64,000 nt of DNA from Kalmusia sp. IMI 367209. Lineage: Eukaryota; Ascomycota; Dothideomycetes; Pleosporales; Didymosphaeriaceae. Below the pieces are notes generated by a model that ran no database searches, was not told the DNA's origin, and saw nothing but the letters and a program-made list of their open reading frames with translations. Location: the NCBI GenBank assembly GCA_027946365.1, contig JAPEUQ010000008.1, positions 1,364,001 to 1,428,000 of the forward strand. Reading direction: 5' to 3'. The first letter of the stretch is position 1. Every line of letters begins with the position of its first letter. Both the position numbers and the translations under genes were made by a program. Shown piece by piece: positions 5,909-41,860 of the stretch.

Positions 5909-8720
5909 ATGGCCCGCGGCCCAGCCATCAAGGAAGAGGACTCTGGTGCCGGGTCCGCAGGCGAGCCCAAGGCCAGCAAACGGCGGTGCGTGCAGTCGGC
6001 CTGTGTGCCCTGCAGGAAGCGGAAGTCCAAGGTAGGCAATATAAGTGCGTTGTGGTCTGAGGACTGCGTTCGCTCCGCGGACGCGTGCTGCATCCCGGGG
6101 CTGTCAGCTGCGGGCGTGGGCGTGGGCGTGTGGGCTTGGGCTGGGTGAAGTGAGGCTCCGTGTTTCTTATATATGCTGACAGCCCATGACAGTGCGACGG
6201 AGGCACACCCGTATGCGCGACATGCACCGCCGTCTACAAGACTCCCTGCTTCTACGACGCCGAGAGCGAGAGCCGTCGCAGCAAGTCGGGCACGAAGCGC
6301 GACGCCTCGGTCGTGTCGACAGCCGCCGCCGCCAGCGACAACGCCGAGTTCCTTGTAACGTCGATCCGCAACCTGCCTGAGGCCGAGGTCAACGACCTGA
6401 TCCAGCACATCCGCAAGGATGCGCGCCTCGACATCGCTGCCCTCGCCGACTCGTGGCGCAAGACCATCACGCTGTCGCCCACCACCACCCTCGAGCCGCA
6501 ATCGCTGGAGAGCGAGCTGTCCATGCTGCTGGGCAAGCCCGCCATGACCCAGTCCGGCGAGAGCCGCTACTTTGGGCACACCAGCGGCATGTCCCTCGTC
6601 CCCGAAGACGAGAACTATACGCGCGCCATGCCGCGGGCTTCGAGTGTCGAGCGCAAATCGCCGACCTGGACCACCGTCACGCACGACATTGCCTTCGTAG
6701 AGCGCCTGCTGGACTTGTACTTCCGCTGGTCGCATCCTTTCTACGTCGTCTTCTCGCGCGAATGCTTCTACAAGGACTTTAGGAGTGGCCGAGAAAAGTA
6801 CTGCAGCCCGCTGCTGGTGAACGCGATTCTGGCCTATGGATGCCATTTCACAGACGACCCAGCAGGCAGGACTGAGCCGGACAACTTCCGCACGGCAGGG
6901 GACCACTTCTTTCAAGAGGCCCGGCGGTTGCTCTACGAGAATGATACGTCTTCCCTCACGACCGTGCAAGCGCTCTGCGTCATGGCTATGCGGGAGCCAT
7001 CGGCCGGTAGGGATTCGTCCGGATTTGCATACATGGGGAGGTGCATGCGTATGGCCATCGAGATGGGACTGCATCTGAAGAACTCGGCAGCGCCAAGCAT
7101 GGAGCTTACGCCTTCGGAAATCGAAGTGCGCAAGGTTACTTTCTGGGGCTGCTTCACAGTCGATACCGTTTGGTCCATTTGCATAGGTCGTATATCGCAG
7201 CTTCCTAGGGTTGCCATTACTCTTGATAAGCCCATATTAGACGAGCCACCAGATGGACCGCACCCACAAGCCTATCCAGGCGCGTCGAAGGTGCCTCCTG
7301 GCACAGTAACCAGTCGCATGTTTCTCCAAGAATTCAGTACACTCTCGGAGCTGATCAACGACAATAACTACATGTTCTACGCACCAACTTTTCGTTTGAC
7401 AGATATCAGATTGATAAATTGTCATAACAAGTACCTGGAATGGCTCAAGAATCTTCCAACGTCGCTGACGCTTGACGGTATAGGGCAGCCGCTACCTCAT
7501 ATCATTGTGCTTCAGTACGTCTATTTGCGAATATCTCGATTTGCTTTCTACCCGCTAACATCAACAGTATGCTGTACCATACCGCCATTGGTCATCTTTT
7601 TCGCCCTATGCTCAAGATCGATTTGATAAACTTTAAGCTGAAGCCCCGCGATGCTTGCATAAACGCTGCCAACAGTGTTTCTGAACTTCTCCGTCTCTAT
7701 CGGCGGCACTATCCGATGCGTACGTGTCACTTGGTACTTACGCACATCCTTCTATCGAACTGCATTGTACACCTTACCTTTTCGAAGGATTCTACGTTTG
7801 CGTCAAGCTCGTACCGCTACCTTGTAGAAGGACTGCAAGGTCTGGAAGATTTGAGCGAATGCCATTGGTTCGGTGCTCGTGCCTTCAAAATAATTTACGA
7901 GACCTCCAAAGCATGGGATCTAGGATTCCCCGAAGAGTTGAAGAACAGCAAGCTGGTGCCAAAGCCTAAGACTGCACCAGCAGAAACTATGGTGGTTCCG
8001 CAGATTGTGACCAAAGTCCCCAGCCGAGTCCATCCCAGCGTGGAATTCAGCCCCGTGCCTACCTCCGCTCCACCTGTGAGGAGAGAGTCTTTGAGCATGT
8101 TTGCACGTCCGCAGCGCAGGGAATCACAGCAGTTGCCCTCTCACCCGGCCATGTCGCCCAGTCAAAATGGAGGCATGCTTCCAGCCCAATCTCAACATGC
8201 CACCGGATCACTTCCCCACATGGTACCATCCTATTCTCCATCGACATCGACCACCCCACAACAGGATTTGCCCACTTCAAACCCCCCTCAGGTCACCACC
8301 GGTTCCGCCGAAACCCTCTTCTGGAATCCGCTGCCCAACATGGCTGGCATGGGCGTGCCTATCCTTCCTCGGAGCAACTATCCAGTGGGGCCCATGGATC
8401 TGGACCGCATGCTAGGTAATTCTGATGAGTGGGACCGGTTTTCTAGGGATGGATTCAAGATGTCCGAGAGTTGGAACCACGATCATGCAAATGCATATGG
8501 TGGGAGTGGGGAAGAGGGTTATCCGCAGGTCAGTGCGGACAGCAACGGGTATGCCCATGCCGAGGTGGCGCACTTTGCGGGTGGAGGACAGATGGGGCAG
8601 CACGGGGTGCAGCACGGGGCGGGCCGGGGTTCGATGCCAGTTGGTGGAATGGTGAGGGGGCGATGGATCGATAACGAGGAGCGAGGCGGGACGGTGGCCT
8701 GGATAGGCGAGCGTGAGTAG
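5909..8720 (+). CDS. Zn2Cys6 transcription factor, NirA/Nit4-like
   Basis: Exons are 5909-6031, 6193-7514 and 7568-8720 (introns 161 and 53 nt), giving 865 aa. The zinc cluster is complete after splicing: C32, C35, C42, C49, C52 and C60, spacing CX2CX6CX6CX2CX7C. The first intron falls exactly between K41 and C42, so the domain is split across exons. The spacing and the following basic stretch resemble the nitrate regulators NirA (Aspergillus) and NIT4 (Neurospora). The middle region has the fungal-specific transcription factor domain (around LLDLYFRWSHPFYVVF and YMGRCMRMAIEMGLH). The C-terminus is Gln/Pro/Ser-rich and ends in a Gly/His-rich tail. It is a nuclear DNA-binding activator by family. 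No nitrate-assimilation genes are nearby, so the NirA assignment rests on similarity recalled from memory; another member of this large class is possible. Confidence 0.85.
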
Positions 8721-20773: not shown

Positions 20774-21505
20774 AGGAAGACGGCGAAGTCTTGGTGTTGA
20801 TGAGAAATGCGAATGCGCCCACGTCCCGGATGTGGAATTGCGGTGGGCGGGCTTCGTGGGGTTGTCAGCGTGCGATTGGCGGGGAGGGCCGAGCTCGCAG
20901 AAGCACGGTCGTATACGACTATGGAGCGCTGCGGCCAGAAGGCAGAAAACAGTGGGATGAGGAGCTCCTCCGCATGCGGAGTCCGGGCTGGAGGCAAAAA
21001 GTGTCTCGCAAGTGTCTGCGAGCGCAATGCTCATTCGACCGTCAGTCGATACAGGCTGGCGGCATCCACAATTGCATGACCTGCAGAGTCCGCAAGCTCA
21101 CGATGGAGGGCGACAGCAGTGAAATGTACCTTGTACCAAGACAATCAGCGAATAATCATCGCTTGTCTCGTGGTTCTTGGGGGGATTATTCGTCCGTCAG
21201 AAGCTCCAGATGTCGCGTTCGTGGCCCTGGTGCAGGCCGCGGGCACACGCTGCGGGCCTCGGCCTTAGCGCCTTCCTGCGTAACGTGAATTATTTATCGG
21301 CCGTCCTTGGTGTGTAGCTGCGCGGCTCCCCTCCACGATAACCAAAAAAACCTACTTCTTCCCACCCGCCCTCCATCATCTTTCTCGTTACGACCTGCAA
21401 TCGATTCTTGCTGCCTTCCCCCAGCTTCGCACCATACGATCCCATCGCTGCTGGGACGCTGAACACGCACTTTCGCCTCCGAGACCGCTCTATCACGCCA
21501 TCGCG
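20774..21505. other. Divergent promoter region MED18/KGD4, 732 bp
   Basis: This is shared upstream DNA of two divergently transcribed housekeeping genes. A pyrimidine-rich stretch lies just before the KGD4 start (about 21350-21480). No further gene is seen. Confidence 0.55.
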
Positions 21506-21924
21506 ATGAATGCCACCAAGATCCTCCAGCAGGGCCGTCAACCCATGATCCGCTTCCTGGGCAAGCGCACCACTCCTAGCAGTATGTTAGCTTCTATATA
21601 GGCATCAATGGCATCCACAGCTGACATGCGACTGCAGAGGTCGACCACACTCCTCACGCCCACCCGGCCGCGCCCACGTCGTCTCTTCCTGAGTCGTTTG
21701 CAAGCTATCGTCAGAAGGCCCAGCAGCATGGCCCTCTGAACCAGACCACCAAGTTCTCGACCAGCCATATCGGTGCTACTCCGGGAGGCTCTCTCGGCCC
21801 CGTTGAGGCCGGCAAGGGCTCATTCTTCGACCGCTCCGAGCTTCCCCAGCGCTTCCAGCGGCTGGCATGGACTGAAGCCGAGATCGAAGCCATTGAATCT
21901 GGCGGCGCAAGCCTTCACGCATGA
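21506..21924 (+). CDS. KGD4: Kgd4/Ymr31 (MRPS36-like) 2-oxoglutarate dehydrogenase subunit
   Basis: Exons are 21506-21581 and 21638-21924 (56-nt intron, phase 1), giving 120 aa. The N-terminus (MNATKILQQGRQPMIRFLGKR) is basic and amphipathic like a mitochondrial targeting sequence. It is followed by the family motif KVDHTPHAHPA, then LPESFASYRQKAQQHGPL, and a C-terminus with LPQRFQRLAWTEAEIEAIESGGA. This small protein was first called mitoribosomal protein Ymr31. It is now known as the adaptor that holds the E3 subunit in the mitochondrial 2-oxoglutarate dehydrogenase complex. Length and motif order match the family. Confidence 0.92.
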
Positions 21925-23381: not shown

Positions 23382-23806
23382 CTAAGCTTTGTTGATCTTG
23401 AACCCGAGAGGCACACGATCAGCGCGGACGTAGCTGCCTCCCTCTGCCTCAGGCGCAGGCTCGGCCTTGGCGTCTCTCTTCAATCCACCAACATACCACA
23501 ATGGAGCGTAGGTAGAGGCCTTTGCCTCCTCCTCGGCCTTAGCGTCCCTCTTCAATCCACCAACGTACCACAGAGGGGCATAGGTGGAGGCCTTCACTTC
23601 GTCATCTTTGGCGACGTCCTCGCGTTTGTTAATCTTGAAGCCCAGAGGTACGCCTTCAGTACGGACGTAGCTTCCACCGGTTGTCGCTTCAGGTTTGCCT
23701 ACGCAGAATTAGTGCGTCGCTCAATTCGCTATCAGATGAACGTACTGATCGGGCTTGCTGCCACGGCGGTGGCGACCGAGAGTAGAGCAAGAGCGGAAAA
23801 CTTCAT
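23382..23806 (-). CDS. Secreted kexin-processed repeat peptide precursor (candidate RiPP/KEP)
   Basis: Exons are 23806-23746 and 23698-23382 (47-nt intron, phase 1), giving 125 aa. Residues 1-17 form a signal peptide (MKFSALALLSVATAVAA). The rest is four peptides separated by Lys-Arg kexin sites and acidic/Ala spacers. Peptide A (28-44) is GGSYVRTEGVPLGFKIN, ending at KR46. Peptide B appears twice, at 58-69 and 82-93, as STYAPLWYVGGL, ending at KR71 and KR95. Peptide A' (107-123) ends the protein with KA and needs no last cut. Spacers such as DAKAEEEAKA resemble X-Ala trimming spacers of alpha-factor precursors. The layout matches UstA/PhomA-type precursors of ustiloxins, phomopsins and epichloecyclins, and the divergent UstYa gene supports this. 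An alpha-type mating pheromone is the main alternative, though no W..PGQP-like core is present. Confidence 0.85.
23475..23591 (-). repeat. Tandem coding repeat of peptide B with kexin sites
   Basis: Two copies of the 15-codon segment encoding ASTYAPLWYVGGLKR (23591-23547 and 23519-23475) lie in a 72-nt period with the spacer. The protein copies are identical. The DNA copies differ at seven codons, all silent (Ser, Tyr, Ala, Pro, Leu, Tyr, Arg codons). This pattern indicates selection on the peptide, not a recent duplication. Confidence 0.9.
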
Positions 23807-24863
23807 GGTGCTGGGCTTCGAAGACTTCGGACTGCACTGTGCGGCGAAGAGATGTCTCCCTACTGTGCAAAGGCAGCAAGCTTTATACAAGTCCAATATG
23901 GTCCTGAATACCGCGAAGATCGCTTAGACTCGGTTCTCAGTTCTGGCAACCAACACTGACTGAAAGATATCTTCCCCGCCCTCCCTTTCCCAGACTATGC
24001 CGATAGAACACTTGGCCGACAGGATCTCGTGTGCCATCTACCTTCCTCACTGAGATGCAAATCCGTTCTCGAAGCCGCCCCTTCGGTTTTCTAGCCCGGC
24101 AGGTGCTCTCGTTATCGGGACGGCTACTTTGCACCCACCAAGATGATAGAGGGTCGTATGCCACTTGCACAGCAGTCAGGCTGCCTATCCAAGCTCGTGA
24201 GACCGCATCTCCTTGCCCACGCGTGGAATATGCAACATCTCGACTTCTGTATACTATTCCCGGCATCAAAGCTCGAAGAACGAAGCCATGGCTATCCCAT
24301 TGTGGTGTCTTTGGGTAGGATATACGGCCGTAACGTTTCGAGACGCTCTAAGAAACATACCATAATCGAGCTAAGCTAAACGACAAAAGTTTTCGCCCCA
24401 CACCGTTATACCCTTCTGCAATCCTTCGATAGGTGTTCTATGAGCTCGTTGTCTAGCGTACGCCGCCTCAGCCTTGTGACCTTCCCTATAAAGCGACAGC
24501 GGGATTTGAGAATCCGTCGCCTAGTTAGTCGTCGCTATAGAAACATAATCCTATTGGATAGATCCAAGTACATAGGCGAGACGTACGACATCTCTGGTGC
24601 AATATCTTCGTGTAGAATGCCATTTGGTAGGATTAATGTCTACGCGTGGTAACCGATGATACAAGCGCCAAGAAGTAGTAGCAACAGAAGCCCCAACAAT
24701 CAAGTCGAGAACGATGCATTTGGTTGGCTTAGATAACAGAGGGGCGAAAATAGTCGCGTGAGTGTGACGCCCCTTGGGCTTCGCCAGTGCATACAGTTTC
24801 TCCGGTCTTTTGGTTCAATGCTTGCTCACGACTCCTCTGCTTCCTGCCGTGCACGTAGTAAGA
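23807..24863. promoter_or_regulatory. Shared divergent promoter of precursor and UstYa gene, 1.06 kb
   Basis: Both genes start at the edges of this segment and point away from each other, which would allow co-regulation. Apart from the TATA box near the precursor start I can name no binding site with confidence. Short ORFs at 24031-24318 and 24440-24652 have no protein-like features. Confidence 0.5.
23882..23887 (-). promoter_or_regulatory. TATA box of the peptide precursor gene
   Basis: TATAAA on the minus strand, 76 nt upstream of the ATG, at a normal distance for a fungal TATA element. Strongly expressed or inducible secreted-protein genes often have one. Position and sequence are the only evidence. 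Confidence 0.5.
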
Positions 24864-25824
24864 ATGAGTTGGTTCGCTCGATCTCAACGCTATGAGAAGA
24901 TAGCTCCAGGAGAGTCTTCCGAAGACGTTTCGCAACAATCACGAATACTACCTTTCGCAGCCCAGATACACAGAAATGCCGCTACGCATATCAACCTTCT
25001 CTTTCTTGTTGCGAACATCATCTTCCTAGCCGCAACTCTTTGGACAGCGCAGCACATTAACTCAGCAAATTCGTTACTCAAGAGAACGAACACGTATAGT
25101 ATGCTCTAGTCACGCCTACCCAGATGACTACAGCGGCCAGTGACTTATAAGCACAGCACCTCTTCTCCACCAGTACGACTTCTCATTCCAAAGGGTAAAA
25201 AACAATGCAAGCCTCTTCAACAACCCCTACAGCATCTACAAAGATGACCCATCGCCTGCAGTCGACGACGCCTGGGACGCCATAGCAGACACACCCGTGC
25301 TCGCCATCTCCAAGGACGACGTTTTGAAAATGGGCAAGGACCCCGAGTACGTCGTCGGCGTACCTGAAGAATTCGGTAAAGCCAGAATTCCGGATCATTG
25401 CATAGATGATAAACTAACCATGAGATCGGAAGGCTACGGACCCAACAAATACTTTGCCGTCAACGACGGCCAGCACCTCATCCATTGCCTCAACGAGGTG
25501 CGCAAGTTCGCCTACTACGATTACTACTATCTGCCCGCCTATGGCAACGCTTCAAACCTCCCAAGACTGGTTGCAGCGCATCGGTCGCACTGTGTGGGCG
25601 TGCTGCTGGATGCGCTGACGTGCCAGCCAAGCTTGAACATGGTGGTTTGGGAGTGGATGGAGGGGATGCGCGAGCCATGGCCTGACTTCAATGTGTGGAG
25701 GAAGTGCCAGGACTACGGGCTGTTTTACGAATGGCAGAAGGGGGCGCAGGTAGAGATTGAGAAGATCAAGGGGTGGGACTGGGGAGAGGAAGGGGAAAAG
25801 AGAGGGAGATGCTGGAGGAGTTGA
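24864..25824 (+). CDS. UstYa-family (DUF3328) membrane oxidase
   Basis: Exons are 24864-25098 and 25157-25824 (58-nt intron, phase 1), giving 300 aa. It has a short cytosolic N-terminus, one transmembrane helix at about 43-62 (INLLFLVANIIFLAATLWTA), and a lumenal domain. That domain carries the two family hallmarks, HLIHC at 185-189 (followed by LNEVRK) and HRSHC at 220-224 (followed by a Cys at 234). DUF3328/UstYa proteins install oxidative cross-links, hydroxylations or halogens in fungal peptide products, including macrocyclisation in ustiloxin, phomopsin and asperipin biosynthesis. The His/Cys motifs are thought to bind copper. The gene is divergent from the kexin-processed precursor, with a 1.06-kb shared promoter. 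I see no UstYb, tyrosinase, methyltransferase or P450 gene in the window, so this would be a minimal locus. Some family members act in non-RiPP clusters, which is the main caveat. Confidence 0.9.
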
Positions 25825-27055: not shown

Positions 27056-27907
27056 CTATCCGATGACGGTCCAGGACATGCCGCTCTCGAGACGGTCGCC
27101 GGATGCGCCGCCGATGCCGCCGGTGAGGGCCTCCCAGAGAGCGGGAGTGGCATCGAGGCCACCCGTGCCGGTGCAGCCGGAGCAGCGGTCGACGATCTTG
27201 GCGTCCTGAGTCTTGCCGTTGTAGGTGACGCGGATCTTCTTGTTGCACCACTTGTTGGTGGGCAGACCGGTGGCAGGGTCGTAGGTGGAGTCGCCGAAGC
27301 CTTCGACGGCGAGAGCAGCCAACATGTCGGTATCGCTGACTGGGTCACCGCAAGCGCCGAGACCGCCGTTGTAGTAGTTCATGGTAAGGGAACCAGAGTA
27401 GCTCTCACCGCCACCGCTGCCACCAGAGGGTTGAGATGGCTGGGACTCAGCGGGGGCAGTGGAGGAAGGCGCGGGGGCAGCCTCAGAAGATGGCTCGGGG
27501 GCAGGGGTAGGAGTGGGCTCCGGAGTAGGGGTGACGGGCTCAGGAGTGGGAGTTGGGGAAGACTCGACCACGGGCTCAGGAGTGCTTGACGGGACCTCGG
27601 GCACGGGAGTGGAAGAGACAATGGGCTCTGGGGTGGGCTCGACCACAACAGCAGATGACGAAGGAGCAGCAGCAGAGGAGCTGGCTACGGCTGCGGCAGA
27701 GCTGGAGGGCTTGTTCTCGAAGAAGAGAGCCGGAGTGGAAGAAGGAGCGACGGGAGCATCGGTAGCCTGCTGGCCGTCCCAGACAGTGGTGAAGACGACG
27801 ACAGTTTGGATGACAGTGTTCGTCTTGGTGACGTAGGCGCGCTTGTCGACGGGGGCAGCGAGGGCCAGAGAGGCGAAGAGGGCCGAGGCAACGACTGCGG
27901 ACTTCAT
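27056..27907 (-). CDS. Secreted RlpA-like double-psi beta-barrel protein (Asp f 7-like)
   Basis: A single exon of 283 aa. Residues 1-18 form a signal peptide, followed by a probable kexin site at K22-R23 that would yield a mature start at AYVTKTNTV. Residues about 50-165 are a low-complexity linker of Pro, Ser, Thr and Glu with repeated TPEP units, probably O-glycosylated. The C-terminal domain (about 170-283) is an RlpA-like barrel: TMNYYNGGLGACG, a Cys-rich middle (NKWCNKKIRV and VDRCSGCTG), then a helix LDATPALWEAL. This matches expansin/cerato-platanin-related barrels such as Asp f 7. By family it is a cell-wall-associated or secreted carbohydrate-binding protein; no enzymatic activity can be assigned. 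Confidence 0.87.
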   Translation of the reverse strand: MKSAVVASALFASLALAAPVDKRAYVTKTNTVIQTVVVFTTVWDGQQATDAPVAPSSTPALFFENKPSSSAAAVASSSAAAPSSSAVVVEPTPEPIVSSTPVPEVPSSTPEPVVESSPTPTPEPVTPTPEPTPTPAPEPSSEAAPAPSSTAPAESQPSQPSGGSGGGESYSGSLTMNYYNGGLGACGDPVSDTDMLAALAVEGFGDSTYDPATGLPTNKWCNKKIRVTYNGKTQDAKIVDRCSGCTGTGGLDATPALWEALTGGIGGASGDRLESGMSWTVIG

Positions 27908-30900
27908 TTTTGCTTTTGTGGTGTTGTTGACGTGCTGGATAGCAATGTGTAACGTGGGTATGTTGGATAGATGTCCAGAGAGTGTGCGGATCGACTAGCA
28001 ATCCAAAAGGTGATACTTGATGTAAGTGTCTGTCTGTCCTGGTGGTGCAGTAGATGTGCTGTGTGGTAGTCTGTGACTTGCGTCGGTATAGACTGTGTGA
28101 CTGAGAAAGACTGGATGAGATGCTGGATCTCGGGAATCGACAATGAATGTGGGGAGAGAACGAAATGGACAAATGCAAGACCTCAAGCCTGTAGAGAGTG
28201 GACAGGAGGAGGGCAGCGAGTGTCTTTTAAAGATTGACGGAGGTTTAGGTGAGATGGGGGAGTGGAGGAGCCGGACAAAGCGAGAAGGAGCTGCGGACTG
28301 GGTCTTTTGCGCTAGCAACGTGCCCCTGCGCGGCTCGACAGCCACGAACAGCCGCCACGCAACGCCGGCTGGCATTGGCCGCGAGTGTCCGGGGCCCTTG
28401 TCGCCGGTGCCTTTTTTTTTCTTTCTTCTCTTTCGCGCAGTGGGGACCGGCGGCGGCGATTCAACAGCAAAGCGTCGGAACCAGGCGTGCGCCCACGGAC
28501 CCTGAACCAGCGTGGCTCGCCCATCGACTCCTCGTCGCAGTGCGCCGTGTCACTCTCGCGCGTCTGCTTCCCCAGCTCCGACTCCAGTCCCAGCTCCAGC
28601 ACCAGCTCCAGCGCCAGACATAGCGGTCGATCCCATTCCGCTGCCCATCTCCGCCGGCCGGCAGGGCTGTCTCTCGTGTGCACCTAATTCGGGCGGACAG
28701 GCAATTTGCGTGCTGGCTGACGAGTTTCACGCATCCGATTCCAGCTAGGCGCAGCCCGTCTCACAGGCACGCAGCCACTCAGCACCACACGCCGCCGTGA
28801 TCGCCAGGCACACGTCGCCAGTGGCCGCTGCAGACAAGGGGCAACACGAACAGGAACAAAGCCAGCCGCAGCGCGAGTCACAAGCTGCAGTGCGCCGTCT
28901 CCTCCTCCTCCTCCTCGTCCTCCTCCGTCGCATCGCCCAGGGCTTTCACATGGCCGCTCTCCCGAGGTTGCTCCAGCATGGTCCACCGGGGATCCCCCGA
29001 CACGTGGACTGCTCCCTGGCGCGTGCGAATGCGCTGCAGAAACATGTTTTTGTGTTTGCCCAGGCGCGAGCCTTCGTGTTTGCCGCATGTCTCGCCCTTT
29101 CTCGCTCGCTCCAACGCCGGCTGAGCGTGTGCCTGCGTTGGTCTCACTCGCTGGCCTCTGGCCATCCGTCTTACGTTGCGCTGGCCGGTGCGCACCCGCG
29201 TCCCACTCGTCGCACTCTTGCTTGTCCACGCCGTCATCGACGACTGGCCCTGCGTCGCAGCATGCATCCAAGATGAATTGCGGGCCGCCTGCAGCCGCGA
29301 TGGTTTCCTACTGGGTGCCTGCAGCTTCTATGCAGCCTTCTGCGCGCGCCAAAACTCTCTTATCCACTTATCGATAGCGATTGGGAATGCAACGACTCCG
29401 CAATACTCTGGACCACCTTCCATCACACCGCTGAGAGCCCAACTCGCTTCTCTAGGCTGACTGAAAAGTCTTTTGCCGCATAGGGTCGACTTGGTCCTCT
29501 CATCGGCTAATTCAGCCTGTTCACTGCTCCCAGGCGCACACACGGCGAATGTCGCCATGCGCAACTAGAAAACGTCAAACCACACACAAAGACGACTCGA
29601 AGCGGGGTACGCATTTCCATGGTGACCACGATGGCAGTTCCTCGTGGAGTCGCGTGGGCGGAATGGACCTCAAAGTGGAACGAACTGGTTCGGTAACCCG
29701 CTTCCGGCTTCAACGCCTGGTTCCGTAACCGTCATGCAACCGATCGAGCTGTAGACGCCGTCGTCCACGTGATCTCGATCATCGGCAGATGGAATGAAAA
29801 GTCTGTAAAAGCTCTCATGGTCGAGACTCTCAAAGTGGACACTCACAAAGTGAACACCGGCGCATCGTACCGCTCTCTGGCAGATGGCGGTGAAACGCGC
29901 CGACGAGCAGTGACAGTTCACCATGTCCTCGGCCAATGGCTTTGCGCTTAGATCCGTAACACAACTTCGAATTGGACATCATGTGTAATTTCCTCTTGTG
30001 GATTGTGTACGAGCACGAAACAGAGGCTTGCCACTAGATCTGGTCTGACTTTCGACCACAAGATTCGAGGCGTTGGTGGGCGACATCTCGTCCTACCTTC
30101 GCTTCCGCTGTTGGCTTCTCTCAAACCCCAGAATACCCTACCCTAAAAATCAGCTGAGCGACAGAGCATTGCTTGCCAGTTGCGCACCACTGCAACATGG
30201 TCCTTTCACACATGGGCTCACGCTAAGGATGTTGGTGCTGGCCGCATCGAGCGGCATACAGTTCCGCTTACTATTGCGTTGAACACTCAACACTTCCACG
30301 CGGCATATCGGAGCAGATCATGATAAGCGAATACTAATCTCTGTAGGGTATGCTTCTACTCATTGGCTACGATAGATTTGAATTTGTCTTTCTTTTACAC
30401 ATGTCCAAAGCCTCTAAGATTCCACTCGACAAGCCCCACTACTAGTGAAGTGTCGCATACTACGCCAACAATTAGCCACTTCTGATTTCGCACCTTCAAT
30501 TAGTCCAGTTCAACATGTCTCATTCATTTTCGTTACGCAGATGATCGTCGCTGTATCTCGCTTATAGTACGTGGTGATCTGCACCGCATAGTGCACCATG
30601 CACTCGCATGTAACCGAGTCGTCCATGCATATCGCACATCGCAGAATGCTCACTACCTCCGACATGAGATGCTACCTCGTCGGCGCACAGCAGAGGGTAC
30701 TTACATCATTACATCGCTTCACGTTGAGTGGTCAGGCGTCCTCCGATTACGCCTAAGGAAGTCCGAAGCCTCATCTCCGTATTAGGATTATGACTACCAT
30801 GTTGGGAACTTTGCGAGAAACGTATTGTGGCGAAGCAGGTGCCTGAAAACAGGTCTCATTTGGTCGAATTCAATGGTGGGGTGATGTGAGTGTCAATGTC

Positions 30901-32487: not shown

Positions 32488-33980
32488 TGGCTCTCTCTTC
32501 ACGTTTTCTCTTTTGCCTTGCGGTTGATATCTCTTTCTACTTGTTTACTACAGCTTTCTCTGCTGCTGCCTGCTGCAGGAATGTAAGTAGATATCCAGAG
32601 GCTATTTTCCTTTGGAGGTGGTCGTATGTTTTGAGGCGGGGTCTGTTTCTGATTCTGGCTTAGGCCTCATGTGGGATAGTTTATGGGGCCGGATACAAAA
32701 TGCTGACCGGATACATCCTTCCGTAGTGAAAGCATTGCCTGGATCCTGCCAGATGGTTGTATTGTGTTTAAGAACGTCAGATCTTAGCGAATGGGATGGT
32801 TGAGTATAATACACGCTCTTGCTCCATGATGCATGATAAGAACGCAGATTGCGCAGGGACTATGCTGTAAAAGTTTGCTGTTCCTCTCATCGCTGGCCCA
32901 TTCACTCACTGTACTAAAGGTGGTTGAATACGGGGATTATATTATTTTCGTCGAGATATTATGAGATGGGAATGATAACTTCGAATGAGTGTCCCTTCTC
33001 TTTTCGGTTAGTAGGCTTCGTTGGATGGAATCGTTTAACGGCGAATCTTGACAACTGCCCTAAGTGTAGAGCGCAAGAAATAGACACCGCAACTCTATAC
33101 GCAGCGCAGCTGTGTTTGAATCTTTATCTTTCTATCATTTCCGTTGTGGAGATATAGCGACGCCAAAGTTTTCACCATTACGCCTGTCGAACGCCACAGC
33201 ATTCTTCCTCCGCTCCGGTGTGCTTTGTCACGTCAACGTTTGAAGACGCTTCATTAAGAAAAGGCCACTGGCAATTCAATCAAGCACTGTATTAATTATT
33301 ACCCAGAAGCCCAGCTTCAATCTTTTCTGTCAAGGGATGACCTTATATCGAGGTGGTTGGAAAAGGTACTGTGAGAATGAAGCAGCTCCTTCACTAGGCA
33401 CTCATCATATCAGGGAACATAGATCCAGAAACAAGTTCTCATTCATTCTTACATAACAGTTTGAAAAGAAGGAGGCGGCGATGACCCTTAGAAGGTACCT
33501 AGAAACGAGCCCGTTCTTCTACCACAGATCGGGACTCACAAATATGTGCTCCGATCACCACGGCCCACAGCAAGCAGAATAGAATATAGGACATAAGAAA
33601 ATGGGTGGGTACTGGGATGCGTATGCGCATAGTAGGTTGGTCCTGGAGAGTTAGGTGGCAGGTCTCGCATCCCTTGCTCCTCTATCGTAATCGCCCACCT
33701 AGAACATTCCTCTGCCTGCTAACCAGCACAAAATGCAAGGTCCCCCTCTTGACGCGAGCGCGCGTTGAAGACGCGGCTGCCCGAATTCCAGACCTCCAAG
33801 GAAAAGATGGCTGGATTGGACCGAAAGTCCTCATCCTGTCTGCTACCTCCACAATTCTCTCCGACGATCAGCGCATCCCACAGTTGCGCGGTCTGTGAGA
33901 TCTGCAGTAGGTCGCACCTGAGAATCATTCGAATGCTGAAAAGAAATTTAACTTGCTAACATATATCAAGAGTAATTGCC
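32488..33980. other. Divergent intergenic region, 1.5 kb
   Basis: This is promoter DNA of the hypothetical protein (minus) and AXL2 (plus). The ORF at 33605-33898 has no family features. No RNA gene or repeat is recognised. Confidence 0.55.
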
Positions 33981-36900
33981 ATGCAGCTGGCGGCTCTTTT
34001 CTGCCTCCTGGCCACTGCGGTCGCAACATCGCCTCAAGTCAACTTTCCGCTTAGTCTTCAGTTCCCACCAGTCGCGCGGGTTGGTGAAGCATATAGCTTC
34101 CAATTTGCGTCTACTACGTTCCAACCGAACCCAGACGAACTCGTATACTCGATAGCTTATGGACCGTCCTGGCTCCACATTCATGGCGAGAACAGAACGA
34201 TTTGGGGTACTCCAGACGCAAAAGATGTTGGAGTCGCAACATTCACAATCGCTGCAGCTGGTGAGGCAGGGGTAGTAGCCAATATGGAATCAAAACTACC
34301 GGTTGAGAATAGTGATGGGCCAGAGGCGAATGGGAATATCTCTCAAGCACTCTCCAAAGCGGGTCAGCTTTCCGGACCACGAAGTGTTACTCTCCTGCCT
34401 TCCAAGCCTTTCGAAATCGTTTTCGGGCGAGATCTATTCAAAGCCAAAGGGAGGAGTCTAACGTACCACACCACTCTTGCGGATCACACACCGTTGCCTG
34501 GATGGATCAGCTTCGACGCGCAGTCTTTACGATTTGCTGGGACGACACCTCCAGCAGCTAGTCCACAAGTATTCCAAGTTCTTCTCATTGCCTCTGATAC
34601 ACCTGATTATGCGACAGCGTCAATATCTTTCACTCTTGTTGTTAGCAACCATCTATTGCTCTTCAAGCCAATGACGCAGAATATGAATGTATCAAAAGGG
34701 GAACACGTAGAAATTAAAGGCTTGAAAGGTCTACTCTTCCTGGACAATGCCCCAATTCGCATTGAAGACATTCAATCCGCTAGTGCCGATCTCCCTAGTT
34801 GGCTATCTTTCGATACCGGATCATTGGACATCAGTGGAATTCCTCCTTCTGGCCTGATGTCTCAGGATATCTCTGTCACAGTGGAAGACAAGTTCGGGGA
34901 TTCGGCCAAACACTCCATTCACCTCGCATTCTCTTCGCAACTATTTACTGGCGAGGTTGGGAAACTAAATCTCACTGCAGGAGTGTACTTCGAACACCAA
35001 ATACCCAAGTCTATTTTGGCTCAAGAAAACGAGAAGGTATCGCTGGAGTTTGGGAAGCTGAACAAATGGCTGAGCTTTGACCCAGAATCGCTTACTGTCA
35101 AAGGAACCTTGCCAGATGACACGGCGGCTTGTTTGATTGAGGGGTCAATGACCGCAACGTCACCAGACGGGAAAACGAGGGACACACAAACCTTCCAGAT
35201 CGATGTTCTTGGAAATAGATCTACTGGATCCAATAATTCGTCGACAACGAACACTAGTTCCAACAAAGATGAAGGTGACGGAATTGCGAACACGGACGCT
35301 GGCTTGACGCAACGAAAGAAAGCAGGCATCATCGTCGGATCTGTATTGTCAGGAATTTTTGCTGCAGCTATACTCTTAGCTTTTATATTCTTCCTGTGTC
35401 GGCGAAAGAAACACGAAAAGGGCTACATCAGCCCTGCAATCCCTCGCAGTCCACGCAAGACCGATATTTCGCGTCCCATTCCAATTGTCGCAGGATGGGA
35501 AGATATAGACAAAGCAGATGATGCGGATCTCGAGAAAGGGAAACTTGACGATTCGCCCCTTCAAACCTCTGAGCGTCCTCCCCAAGTCCACCTTCCAGCA
35601 CCCACAAAACGCAAATTTCACCATGCGCACGCAATTTCTCTCGATGAAAACGAAGACCACATGCTCACAACCTTTCATAAATCTTTGGCATTCCCAGACG
35701 AATCCGGACCCTCTCATCATCCCCATGACTCGATGAAAATACCAACCGAATCGTTGCGAAGAACATCAGCAAGTTCTAATTCGAAGCAACGAGCACGTAC
35801 TATGAACGTTCACAGAGATAGTTACCATCGAAGCTCGGGAATACCTTACAATCGACGTTTGACTGAACTCGGTTATGGGCGACACACGTATACACCGTCG
35901 CAAAATACCACCCTCACAGGCATGCAGCGAACTTTGAGTTCGAGTTCGCGTTCCACAGCGACACAATCCATGAGCCTAGCATCTACTGTGCCCTCTGCGC
36001 CTCCTCAGCAGTCAAGAGCCCGGCATACCACGCAATTAACAACCCCAATGGAGCATAAACGTAGCGTCCGGCTGATAGCATCATCCACTTGCCATAGTTT
36101 GCTTGACCGCCGAACAATTGACGAAAAGCGCAAGAGCTATATCCGAAAACGTGCCTCAGCTCAATCACCATTTTTTGGCGGCAATTCCCGTGTCTCCTCA
36201 TCCAGCTACAAATCTCCTCCAGACTTCATTGGTGACTCGAGTCCGGCGACAAAGTCCCCTCTAGCTCCTATCTCCCCTAACATTTTGAGATTCAGCGATT
36301 CTGTCCCTAATGAAAATAAAATGGAGCGCGCCATACCTGAAAGTCTACTTATTCGAAAGCCTGCTGATACACCATCTCCGGTCACCTACAGAACCGACTA
36401 CTCCCGAAGTCTCCGAAAGCACAGGCCCACAAGGGCTTTCTTGCGTAGAAATACTGAAGGTTCGTTGGTGACGGACAATGATCGAGCCGAGAATTCTTCT
36501 GCTCGACCCGAGACTATCGTGTACTCACCCCCTAGTCTAGATCCTGGTAAATCAATGTATGGAAACCTTCGTGGTGCAGGACTGAAAATGAACCTCAACA
36601 AGATGACAGGCGAGCCTATCTTTACAGACGAAGAGATGAGCGAAAGCAACTACAGTGGAGAAGAGAATGACATCGAAGAAGCCGAGAAACGCGCCACCCT
36701 CAAACCGAGTAACTCAATAAAATATGCAATAGGGCCCCTCAAATTTGAAAAGAAAGAACAGAACCAAAAGCGTGAGAGCAAGAGGAGCAGCAAAAGGAAC
36801 AGCAAGAGGGAATTGAAACGTACAAGTGAACGTGATCCCACACCCTACCGCGCCTTCGAACACGGTGGAAAGGAGAACCACTCCTCGACTTACAGCCTGG

Positions 36901-37762
36901 TTCCTGCAAACCCCACAACTAATACGACATCTTCTAGACCTAAGCACACATCTACAAGCTCCCCCGAGCGCCCAAAAACAGCAATAGGACCCCGTGTCAA
37001 GCGTAACTCGCGCACCTACTCCCACACCATCACCCGCTCCCCTTCACACCGCACCAGCACCACCCACCCTCTCCCCGCATCCCCTCCGACGACCGCGAAC
37101 GCCACTCCCGCAAATCAATCCACTCACGGCAGCAATCGCGGCTCTCCCTCACTGCTCCCAAGAAACGCCGCGACCGCTCGCGCACGCAGTCCGGCGCGTA
37201 CCCACACTTGAACGACACGTCCGCCCTCATGCAAGAGATCAACAAAGCCACCGAAGGCACGCACAGGCGTCCACGCGGAGACACGGCGGAGTCGAAGACG
37301 GAGCGCGACGGCGCCGGCAACGTGGTGGGATATGGCGAGGGCGAGGCGCCCAAGATCGAGGAGCTAGGGAAGCAGAGTATAGGCGTGAGGACGTCGAATG
37401 GGCACGTGAGCGCGGGCGCGAGATACTCCAAGTTGGCGCAGCTGCATACTTCGCCCTTTTATCACTCCAAGCGCGAGACTGTAATCCCGTCGTCTTCGAC
37501 GCCCACGCAGACACATTACGAGGGCCTGGGCTTGTCGATAGATGTTTTGGATGGTGAGGACAAGACGCTGCGCCCTGAGAGTGCGAGGGAAGGAAGGGAG
37601 CGCACGCCGTTGAGTGTGCTGGATGATGGGAATCGGGGAACTCCTGAGCGCGTGCGGGTGACTGAGGGCAAGGGAAGCGGGTGGTTAGTGGGGAGGTTGA
37701 CGAGAAACGGCCGGGAAGGGAGGATTGGGAGTTTAAGGGGTTGCTGGGGAGGAGCGGGGTAG
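33981..37762 (+). CDS. AXL2: Axl2-like bud-site/polarity membrane protein, apparent frameshift near 37.0 kb
   Basis: The main frame runs 33981-37211 (1076 codons). It has a signal peptide (MQLAALFCLLATAVA), an extracellular half with cadherin/dystroglycan-type repeats (WLHIHGENRTIWGTP, LPGWISFDAQSLRFAGTTP, LPSWLSFDTGSLDISGIPP), one transmembrane helix at 448-473 and a long disordered cytosolic tail with a basic SKR repeat. The expected C-terminal part lies in another frame at about 37082-37762 (SRKSIHSRQQSRLSL, DTSALMQEINK, SAGARYSKLAQLHTSPFY). A +2 shift is needed between about 36996 and 37085. A 62-nt intron 36996-37057 with a weak GTCAAG donor would supply it; a missing base in C-runs would too. 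By family the protein marks sites for polarised growth and septation. Confidence 0.82.
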
Positions 37763-40062: not shown

Positions 40063-40753
40063 AGTAAGTTTTGCCTTTCCTTCCGAAGGGTGTGACTTCC
40101 ATGTCGAGCCTACTGTTTCCTCGATACGTCGACGATGCGTGTGACGGACTTGCAGAGCTCGATACCATTTGAAGCCATGCCCGTTGTCTGAATGATAACC
40201 AGAACTTGTATGCTGATGTCTGAGCAGTGACTCGCTCCCACAAATTCACTGACCGTGACCATGCTGGCCTCGCCGATGGGTCCGCTCACCCTGACGAGCA
40301 CCTTCCTCGATACTTCGCCAAGTCAGGCCATGTCAACGAGGATCCTAACAAGACGAAGAAGAATGGTGGCGGCAAAGGCAATTGGTAAGCTTATCCCGTC
40401 CTCCATTTCACATCCTCCAGTATTTGAGTGCTCCTCTCTCGCACGCTAGAGAGCCCCACATTACGTCAATTGACCTCTCTTCGTTGTGATCTTTTGAGTC
40501 TTCCTCTAACATCGATAGGGGCCGCGATGGCGAAGAGGTCGAAGACATGGGCTACAACATAGCCAATGCTCGCCGCCGAAGCAATTCTAGCACGAACCCC
40601 ACCAAGGACTTCAAGACTAAGTTCGAGACCATTGAGCCCGAGCCCGTCTTTGAGGAAGAGCTTCATGGCCCAATGGGCGCCGAGCTTGACAAGGAGAGCA
40701 CCACGTCCAGCTCCAACACCGTCGAGGAGGAGGACGCCTCCAAGAAATTCTAG
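40063..40753 (+). CDS. STF2-like hydrophilin, start codon split by an intron
   Basis: The conserved N-terminus MTRSHKFTDRD is encoded only if A40063 is joined to TG at 40228, across a 164-nt GTAAGT...GAGCAG intron. Further exons are 40228-40384 and 40519-40753 (second intron 134 nt), giving 130 aa. The signature HLPRYFAKSGHVNEDPNK then GGGKGNWGRDGEEVEDM matches yeast Stf2/Tfs-type proteins (KGNWGKPGDEIDD). These are small hydrophilic proteins linked to F1Fo-ATPase inhibitor stabilisation and desiccation tolerance. The C-terminal extension is acidic, Ser/Thr-rich and longer than in yeast. No other ATG gives the conserved N-terminus: the nearest downstream in-frame ATG would drop it. Confidence 0.85.
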
Positions 40754-41860
40754 AGCGTGTAGCCAGGGCCCGGACGGGACGGCTGGGGACGAGAGTGACG
40801 GTACAACCCATCTACTACGGCATGAGCATCGTTCACTACGAGTTAACTGGCAAGTTTACTCGTTGAAAGTCTACGGTGTGCATGTTCGCACCATGGTTTC
40901 CATACAGGAACCGGGTTTGAGTTCCGGGCAATGGTTGCAGCTATGTATTATGATTCTGCCTGAGGTCGCTGGTGGCACAGCACCTACAGGCATTTGGGAA
41001 TCGGCGTCTTCTCATCTTTCTTTTATGGGGATTTCTTCGGTCCGGCCCGGGTCTTATGAAGTATGATAATGACCTGAAATGTAAAACAGATAACTCAATG
41101 GATATGTATACTATCCACCAAGGAAAGGCTAGCTATTCGCGCAACCTTTGTGAAGTCCGTAAGCCAAAGCGCCAATAAGAACAAATAGAACAGCGATTTG
41201 GGATGTCTACCTGTTGTGCCCATTCTGTTCTACATACCACATCACGCGACGATATATGATACATGAATGATTTTGAATCTTTCTCATCGTTGTATAGTGA
41301 GGCCTAACGACTTACTGCCACACTTGCCGCCCTATATTGCTTGTGGAAAACGTGATATGAAATTAACTGAGAGGATTCTACAGATTTAGGCCCGAACAAG
41401 CCATCATGCAGATATAGATAACGTTTGTGACACATATTTCATTTGGACTATCTCCTATTTATCTCAAGTAATACCACGTGTATGGCGTCTCAGACCATAC
41501 CTAGGTTTAATTGTGCCCCGGAAAATGATTCTAGCTACTACTGTGTACTTCTTATGAAACGAGCGAAGGCTAAAACGAATGGAAAACAAAGCATCGCGAT
41601 CGCGAAGTGGTGAAGATGGCTCATAGAGTAATATAATGCATTGCACGCAAAGGACCTGGAAAGACAATAGTGAAGCTGAGTCGCACTTGCCCCGATAAGT
41701 CCGCGCCAAGCACGTCGCATCCCTGTCCGAGCTTTCTTTGGCTTCCGAACAACGAAAACATACAGCGCATCGAGTCAACACCCGCACTCGCCCACGCGAT
41801 CGGCGTCAACCTTCAACTCCGGCGCGTGCATCGCGCAGCTCTCCTCTCAGTTCGCGCACC
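40754..41860. other. Intergenic, 1.1 kb
   Basis: This holds the 3' UTR of the STF2-like gene and the promoter of NUP133. No gene or repeat is recognised. Confidence 0.55.

What the first reader, a model, noticed from the sequence alone, without database searches (positions are those of the whole stretch)
23382..25824. Compact two-gene RiPP-like locus: repeat precursor divergent from a UstYa oxidase
A DUF3328 protein with intact HLIHC and HRSHC motifs lies head-to-head with the precursor, 1.06 kb apart. UstYa proteins cross-link Tyr-containing cores of kexin-processed precursors, and peptide B has two Tyr and one Trp, peptide A one Tyr. No second UstY, tyrosinase, P450, methyltransferase or transporter is visible nearby, so this could be a minimal dikaritin-type pathway with a new product.
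Basis: partly seen in the sequence, partly recalled or inferred. Interest (0 to 1): 0.92.

Follow-up and report, generated by a model that had tools for sequence, protein, structure and literature searches.

The report
Two-gene fungal cyclic-peptide cassette
A plant-dwelling fungus carries a small repeat protein, predicted to be cut into two kinds of short peptide, back-to-back with one oxidase gene that would likely cross-link them, and the same genome holds about a dozen more precursor-oxidase pairs, so the locus is one member of a large, little-explored peptide repertoire rather than a new kind of system.

Summary
A 125-aa repeat precursor (minus strand, 23382-23806, one intron) reads A-B-B-A', with B = STYAPLWYVGGL and A = GGSYVR...VPLGFKIN, set off by Lys-Arg sites. 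It lies head-to-head, 1,057 bp ATG to ATG, with a UstYa gene (24864-25824; Pfam E 8.5e-42; HLIHC and HRSHC intact). The genome is cf. Kalmusia sp. IMI 367209. The two B copies differ by 8 synonymous and 0 nonsynonymous changes, so the peptide appears to be under selection. A second locus (contig C30) repeats the arrangement: five TYAPL[VY]YTGGL cores divergent from another UstYa; both B tyrosines are kept, the Trp is not. Of 56 UstYa loci I fetched the first 20 in contig order: 8 have a repeat precursor within 1.4 kb (one degenerate), 12 none. With loci picked by similarity, 12 of 14 pairs are head-to-head. The two TYAPL precursors sit beside UstYas of different clades. This is a new member of a known kind (KEP plus UstYa, dikaritin-type). 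Processing, cross-linking and product are untested, and conservation of the pair in other species could not be shown.

The parts
23382..23806 (-). precursor (KEP) gene; exon 1 23806-23746, intron 23745-23699, exon 2 23698-23382
   Evidence: gene model; identical to N0V90_008126
23756..23806 (-). hydrophobic N-terminus MKFSALALLSVATAVAA, read as a signal peptide
   Evidence: sequence; no signal-peptide program was run
23628..23678 (-). peptide A, copy 1: GGSYVRTEGVPLGFKIN, followed by Lys-Arg
23553..23588 (-). peptide B, copy 1: STYAPLWYVGGL, followed by Lys-Arg
23481..23516 (-). peptide B, copy 2: STYAPLWYVGGL, followed by Lys-Arg; 8 synonymous and 0 nonsynonymous differences from copy 1 over the 60-nt unit
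23391..23441 (-). peptide A, copy 2: GGSYVRADRVPLGFKIN, followed by Lys-Ala-stop
23807..24863 (.). 1,057-bp divergent intergenic region, presumed to carry both promoters
   Evidence: shares no exact word longer than 10 bases with the 1,037-bp spacer of the C30 locus
24864..25824 (+). UstYa-family (DUF3328) gene, 281 aa; introns 25099-25156 and 25376-25432
25474..25488 (+). first HxxHC motif, HLIHC
   Evidence: H166, H169 and C170 invariant in the 10-row alignment
25579..25593 (+). second HxxHC motif, HRSHC
   Evidence: H201 and C205 invariant, H204 nearly so, in the 10-row alignment

Best explanation
A 125-residue repeat protein holding two copies each of two peptides, set off by Lys-Arg sites, is encoded head-to-head with a UstYa-family gene; the protein is predicted to be secreted and cut by Kex2, and the UstYa enzyme would likely oxidise the peptide cores, most probably cross-linking them through their tyrosines. 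Shown: both gene structures as models, the A-B-B-A' order, the intact double HxxHC motif, the synonymous-only divergence of the B copies, the paralogous pair, and the recurrence of such pairs in this genome. Inferred: entry into the secretory pathway, cleavage by Kex2 followed by trimming of the Xaa-Ala/Pro-rich spacers and the basic ends by general proteases, action of the adjacent UstYa on the cores, and the chemistry itself. Tyr3 and Tyr8 of STYAPLWYVGGL are the preferred sites because both are kept in the paralogue while Trp7 is not. The expected sign is a loss of 2.016 Da per cross-link from [M+H]+ 1326.673 for STYAPLWYVGGL, or the matching series if trimming differs.
For: Pfam UstYa 8.5e-42 and two HxxHC motifs. 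Repeats with Lys-Arg sites. B copies 8 synonymous to 0 nonsynonymous; A copies 8 to 3; C30 cores 51 to 12 summed over the 10 pairwise comparisons of 5 copies. Paralogue precursor with five TYAPL[VY]YTGGL cores divergent from its own UstYa, start codons 1,037 bp apart. A 75-aa ORF from a 590-base ENA contig ends in SYAPLVYTGGLKN, much as the C30 precursor ends in TYAPLYYTGGLKN (E 0.16). Repeat precursors beside 8 of the 20 UstYa loci taken in contig order, 0.75-1.33 kb away, while no convincing one was seen in the other ~63 kb of the window. Literature: UstYa genes are enriched next to KEP genes, and Tyr is commoner in repeats of such KEPs, 65.6% against 38.2% (PMC7329392, section 7).
Against: No expression, peptide or mass data. 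No precursor orthologue was found in species that hold UstYa orthologues. The best-scoring in-genome relative of the window's UstYa (C25:3386k, 54%) has no repeat precursor in the 7 kb fetched, and 12 of the 20 contig-order loci show none. The two TYAPL precursors stand beside UstYas that are not sisters, so core and enzyme are only loosely tied. Three of the 13 clear pairs have listed cores without Tyr, and one of these has neither Tyr nor Trp. The AlphaFold model of an orthologue is poor (mean pLDDT 57.5), so no active site was modelled.
Confidence: 0.68

Rival explanations
1. The precursor yields linear, unmodified secreted peptides (signalling, pheromone-like or antimicrobial), and the neighbouring UstYa serves something else.
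For: 6,120 of 7,878 surveyed KEPs have no UstYa neighbour, and some linear KEP peptides are functional (PMC7329392). The spacers (DAKAEEEAKA, DAKAEPAPEA) look like dipeptidyl-aminopeptidase spacers of alpha-factor type (recalled).
Against: The divergent pairing recurs at the paralogous locus and elsewhere. A rough chance that a given gene's 5' neighbour is a UstYa gene is 0.5% (73 merged matches over 13,561 genes). The cores match neither alpha-pheromone type described in the passages seen (PMC6339444); another gene, C23:793k, with PNCRFPGQPC repeats, looks more like a pheromone precursor.
Confidence: 0.13
2. The UstYa acts on the cores but does not cross-link them: it hydroxylates, desaturates or otherwise oxidises them, or it needs further enzymes encoded elsewhere.
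For: UstYa homologues are needed for desaturation in phomopsins (PMC10512285) and are linked to hydroxylation and chlorination in cyclochlorotine (PMC12048977). Two different cores would share one enzyme here.
Against: Asperipin-2a is reported with just one DUF3328 protein (PMC7329392). The two Tyr are the retained aromatics of B.
Confidence: 0.14
3. The locus is a decaying or unused pair.
For: The last residues of the UstYa do not align with the orthologues' tails, and no precursor orthologue was found.
Against: Synonymous-only differences between B copies; Pfam domain and both motifs intact; the tail lies beyond the matched domain, which ends at residue 255.
Confidence: 0.05

Closest known systems
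Asperipin-2a pathway (Aspergillus flavus)
   Same: A repeat precursor with Kex2 sites and a single UstYa (DUF3328) protein (PMC7329392).
   Different: Four genes are reported as responsible for asperipin-2a (PMC10512285); here only two are visible. The cores differ, and here one precursor carries two kinds of core.
Ustiloxin and phomopsin pathways
   Same: Kex2-processed repeat precursor plus UstYa proteins; Tyr-containing cores.
   Different: Two and five UstYa proteins respectively, and a tyrosinase; neither a second UstYa nor a tyrosinase is seen here. No YxIx core.
Dikaritin-type clusters of Venturia inaequalis
   Same: A fungus of the same class (recalled) with nine clusters defined as a DUF3328 gene close to a repeat precursor (PMC9632046).
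   Different: Cores and gene orientation are not given in the passages seen, so no closer comparison was possible.
UstYa-associated KEPs surveyed by Umemura 2020 (PMC7329392)
   Same: 1,758 of 7,878 KEPs have a DUF3328 gene among the 15 closest genes, most often at the next position.
   Different: Five pieces of the A and B cores gave no paper; the survey's supplementary lists could not be read, so it is not known whether a relative is among its types.
Alpha-type mating pheromone precursors
   Same: Signal-like N-terminus, repeats, Kex2 sites and Ste13-like spacers (spacers recalled).
   Different: Cores match neither the Pleosporales PYG[LM]P[IV]G type nor the two-Cys type (PMC6339444 passages).

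Membership tests
Kex2-processed repeat protein (KEP) | repeated cores separated by Kex2 (KR/KK/RR) sites | tested here: met
   two A and two B cores, three Lys-Arg sites
Kex2-processed repeat protein (KEP) | N-terminal signal peptide | tested here: inconclusive
   hydrophobic N-terminus read by eye; no signal-peptide program was available
Kex2-processed repeat protein (KEP) | cleavage by Kex2 and release of peptides | not testable with these tools
   needs peptide mass data
UstYa (DUF3328) protein | match to Pfam PF11807 above cut-off | tested here: met
   143.9 bits against 25
UstYa (DUF3328) protein | two HxxHC motifs | tested here: met
   HLIHC and HRSHC; the motif His and Cys columns are invariant in the 10-row alignment except H204, which is nearly so
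Dikaritin, later definition (repeat precursor with UstYa as class-defining enzyme; PMC10512285 and PMC12048977 passages) | repeat precursor with UstYa gene | tested here: met
Dikaritin, later definition | UstYa-cyclised product | not testable with these tools
   no chemistry available; hence filed as a dikaritin-type candidate only
Dikaritin, first five-gene definition (as told in PMC12048977) | tyrosinase, methyltransferase, several DUF3328 proteins, and transporter or peptidase in the cluster | tested here: not met
   30 ORFs of the window scanned with Pfam show none of these; not filed under this definition
Ascomycete alpha mating pheromone | PYG[LM]P[IV]G (Pleosporales) or two-Cys core | tested here: not met
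   core sequences against the passages of PMC6339444

The most novel reading that the evidence does not exclude
The window holds one of a large set of self-contained two-gene cassettes in which a single divergent UstYa cyclises two unrelated cores from one precursor, and in which cores and enzymes have been reassorted: closely similar TYAPL-GGL cores are served by UstYas of separate clades, so the head-to-head cassette, not the enzyme-core pair, is the unit that evolution keeps.
Probability: 0.3. Interest if true: 0.66.

Novelty: new member of a known kind. Interest (0 to 1): 0.45.

Why it matters
If the pair works as predicted it is about as small as a fungal cyclic-peptide pathway can be, easy to move into a laboratory host, and a natural test of how one UstYa copes with two cores. 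The wider pattern, 13 clear precursor-UstYa pairs in one endophyte genome with 12 of the 13 head-to-head, gives a simple search rule (look about 1 kb upstream of each UstYa gene) for precursors that gene finders may miss; the C30 precursor did not come up in the protein database search. A profile of ten UstYa proteins matched no solved structure up to E 1.

Tried and rejected
AlphaFold2 on the orthologue P0006 with 16 relatives gave mean pLDDT 57.5 and pTM 0.41; I ran no fold search on it because a poor model gives meaningless matches. A shared promoter motif between the two divergent spacers was sought: no exact word longer than 10 bases, and blastn-short nothing better than E 0.82. Alpha pheromone was considered and rejected (membership test). 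A recent duplication of the whole pair as the origin of the C30 locus was rejected: the two UstYas are 30-32% identical over the matched parts; among other loci the C30 gene ranks sixth in the window gene's list and the window gene fifth in the C30 gene's list; the data reject them as sisters (p-AU 1.5e-46, under that model and with assembled fragments); and the spacers share nothing. A clean reading of partner swapping is not secure either: the C30 UstYa's nearest relative, C27:873k, sits beside a precursor with TEFAPWYRATNILPASDD cores, whose F-A-P-W-Y resembles Y-A-P-L-W-Y, so an old common core is possible. Papers: no hit for five pieces of the cores. Two searches joined DUF3328, UstYa or ustiloxin with words for divergent or bidirectional arrangement (the best 10 of 448 and 15 of 790 listed); two listed papers that hold both kinds of word use them for other things in the passages shown. 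PMC7533671 (victorin) is not held; one search failed on a short term.

Full report
What the DNA holds. The window lies on contig C29 of a 42.78-Mb, 30-contig genome. The precursor is identical to N0V90_008126 of Kalmusia sp. IMI 367209, and the published assembly of cf. Kalmusia sp. IMI 367209 has 30 contigs, 42.78 Mb and 13,561 genes (PMC10027605, section 5 and passages). That paper describes endophytes and places the strain, with doubt about the genus, in the Didymosphaeriaceae. On the minus strand, 23806-23382, one intron (23745-23699) separates a hydrophobic N-terminus from a repeat exon; the product has 125 residues. It reads A-B-B-A': GGSYVRTEGVPLGFKIN-KR, STYAPLWYVGGL-KR twice, and GGSYVRADRVPLGFKIN-KA-stop. 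The spacers are rich in Xaa-Ala and Xaa-Pro, as in alpha-factor precursors (recalled). On the plus strand, 24864-25824, a UstYa gene with two introns encodes 281 residues, Pfam UstYa E 8.5e-42, with HLIHC and HRSHC. Five orthologues show that the deposited 300-residue model most likely keeps an intron. The start codons are 1,057 bp apart. The splice sites are chosen by hand from GT-AG options, not from transcripts.

Is the peptide real? The two B units of 60 nt differ at eight positions, all synonymous; with 14.3 synonymous and 45.7 nonsynonymous sites that has a chance of about 1e-5 (a simple site-count binomial that ignores mutation bias). The A copies differ by 8 synonymous and 3 nonsynonymous changes over 54 nt (chance about 0.001, same method). 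Such a pattern is hard to explain unless the peptide sequence matters.

A second pair in the same genome. The precursor as query finds one other place, C30:1363396-1363809, minus strand, in two pieces, and a UstYa match from the family search lies at C30:1365087-1365848, plus strand. The locus (L014) carries a 150-residue precursor with an intron in the same place, right after the hydrophobic N-terminus, and five cores TYAPL[YV]YTGGL, divergent from a 307-residue UstYa, start codons 1,037 bp apart. T, Y, A, P, L, Y, G, G and L are shared with B; the residue between L and Y is Trp in the window and Tyr or Val here. Peptide A is absent here. Summed over the ten pairs of the five copies, 51 synonymous and 12 nonsynonymous differences are seen. 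In the protein database (5.8 billion sequences, word-based search) the precursor alone finds only itself up to E 10; with both precursors as a profile, three more appear: a 75-residue ORF from a 590-base ENA contig at E 0.16, whose end, SYAPLVYTGGLKN, resembles the C30 precursor's end, so I take it as a true relative in spite of the E-value, and two at E 0.64 and 0.98 that I did not follow.

The pairing is a habit of this genome. PF11807 gives 102 matches in six frames at E 0.001, which I merged to 73 gene-like groups at 56 loci (exon-split genes make this rough). Scripts looking for repeats before dibasic sites, read by eye, show a clear repeat precursor in 7 of the 20 (L016, L025, L027, L029, L030, L032, L034) and a degenerate one in L026 (not flagged); in 12 of 20 I saw none. 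ORFs flagged by a script that I discarded by eye were those in L013 (97-531), L015, L019, the ankyrin-like and a shifted-frame ORF of L032, antisense or shifted frames of true ones, and two low-complexity ORFs of the window (33960-37208, 40563-41063). Six of the eight are head-to-head, one is tail-to-tail (L032), one in tandem (L026). Five further pairs come from loci chosen by similarity, not at random: C30 (L014), C29:760k (L036), C27:873k (L041), C29:252k (L042) and C27:540k (L039, met at E 0.01 and read; its six cores end in Lys-Glu-Arg, with Lys-Arg only in some spacers, so it is the least typical of those I call clear). With the window that makes 14 pairs, 12 of them head-to-head, with 0.75-1.44 kb between the repeat ORF and the UstYa match. 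One more similarity-chosen locus, C25:3386k (L035), the window UstYa's best-scoring in-genome relative, has no repeat precursor in 7 kb. Under a rough one-in-four null the orientation bias is 3e-6 for the 14 pairs and 0.004 for the eight unselected ones. UstYa-free control DNA was limited to the window and the 10 kb of L013. Of the 13 clear pairs, 10 have a Tyr in the core listed, two more only Trp, and one, C4:29k, neither.

Core and enzyme do not travel together strictly. Pieces of UstYa proteins from 21 loci of this genome were put together; with five database proteins that gave 26 sequences, of which 18 went into one tree and 14 into another, short and long-branched ones being left out. 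The window's gene groups with orthologues from Paraphaeosphaeria, Bimuria and others (P0009, P0010, P0006, P0011; 99/99 and 100/99), then with C25:3386k, P0013 and C29:760k (98/99 and 95/99), whereas the C30 gene groups with C27:873k (99/99 and 89/88). Holding the window's and the C30 gene together is rejected (p-AU 1.5e-46), with the caveat that several rows are pieced together from exon matches and have long branches. Thus related cores (TYAPL-GGL) stand beside enzymes of two clades, and related enzymes stand beside different cores (PQYHGKDVIKI at C29:760k, TEFAPWYRATNILPASDD at C27:873k). The last of these has F-A-P-W-Y, which may be an old relic of Y-A-P-L-W-Y, so either reassortment or descent with drift of the core remains possible.

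Neighbourhood. Pfam scans of 30 ORFs of the window (29 of the 54 picked, plus 21284-21601) match housekeeping-type genes: polynucleotide kinase 3'-phosphatase, Med18 (two ORFs), a He_PIG-domain protein, DRE2, a nucleoporin, Tcp11, chorismate synthase, RhoGAP, asparagine synthase, and a fungal transcription factor domain (6190-7623) about 16 kb away; the other ORFs match nothing at E 0.01. No tyrosinase, P450, methyltransferase, transporter or second UstYa was matched.

How it most likely works. The precursor would enter the secretory pathway, Kex2 would cut after Lys-Arg, and general exopeptidases would trim the spacers; the UstYa, which has a hydrophobic segment near its N-terminus, would act on the cores in the same compartment. 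The chemistry most in keeping with known cases is an oxidative cross-link involving tyrosine; Tyr3 and Tyr8 of B are the candidates. All of this paragraph is inference from the known pathways (PMC7329392: abstract, section 6 part 1 of 2, sections 7 and 9; passages of PMC10512285, PMC12048977 and PMC9632046).

Novelty. KEP-UstYa neighbours are known in numbers: 1,758 of 7,878 KEPs, with the UstYa gene most often next door. The present pair is a new member of that kind, with cores for which five sequence pieces gave no paper. Less usual are that one precursor carries two different cores, and that head-to-head cassettes dominate among the pairs seen in this genome. Two searches of the paper library showed no paper that treats such an arrangement for UstYa genes among those listed (listings, plus passages of two papers), which is weak evidence. 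Interest 0.45.

Noticed in passing
L040 (G000:C23:793458-793565 and flanks), ORF 976-1710 +: A repeat protein with at least seven PNCRFPGQPC units before dibasic sites, which looks like a two-Cys alpha pheromone precursor; the passages of PMC6339444 give Pleosporales another core type, so this would be worth checking.
   Followed up: partly
L042 (G000:C29:249000-252700), 1728-2258 -; L034, 3408-3791 -: Two more UstYa-adjacent precursors that mix two kinds of unit, as the window's does: PAVLYVSSVLPKSE with VDESELACCLI-type units, and DATYTSINW with PDWDYG-type units.
   Followed up: no
window 25376-25432: The deposited UstYa model N0V90_008127 (300 aa) appears to keep this intron; five orthologues lack the 19 residues.
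   Followed up: yes
window 25790-25824: The last residues of the window's UstYa do not align with the tails of its orthologues; the region lies beyond the Pfam domain.
   Followed up: no
L014 1421-1939 -: The C30 precursor did not come up in the protein database search with a profile that contains it, so it is probably unannotated.
   Followed up: partly
L035 95-438: An array of about 11-nt repeats (CAATAATCATT-like) some 3 kb from the best-scoring in-genome relative of the window's UstYa.
   Followed up: no
L026 5987-6379 +: A degenerate precursor with GPHHVDKR-like units in tandem with a UstYa gene, possibly a decaying cassette.
   Followed up: no
window 27059-27994 -: A Ser/Pro-rich protein with a hydrophobic N-terminus and a Cys-containing C-terminal region; no Pfam match at 0.01.
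   Followed up: no
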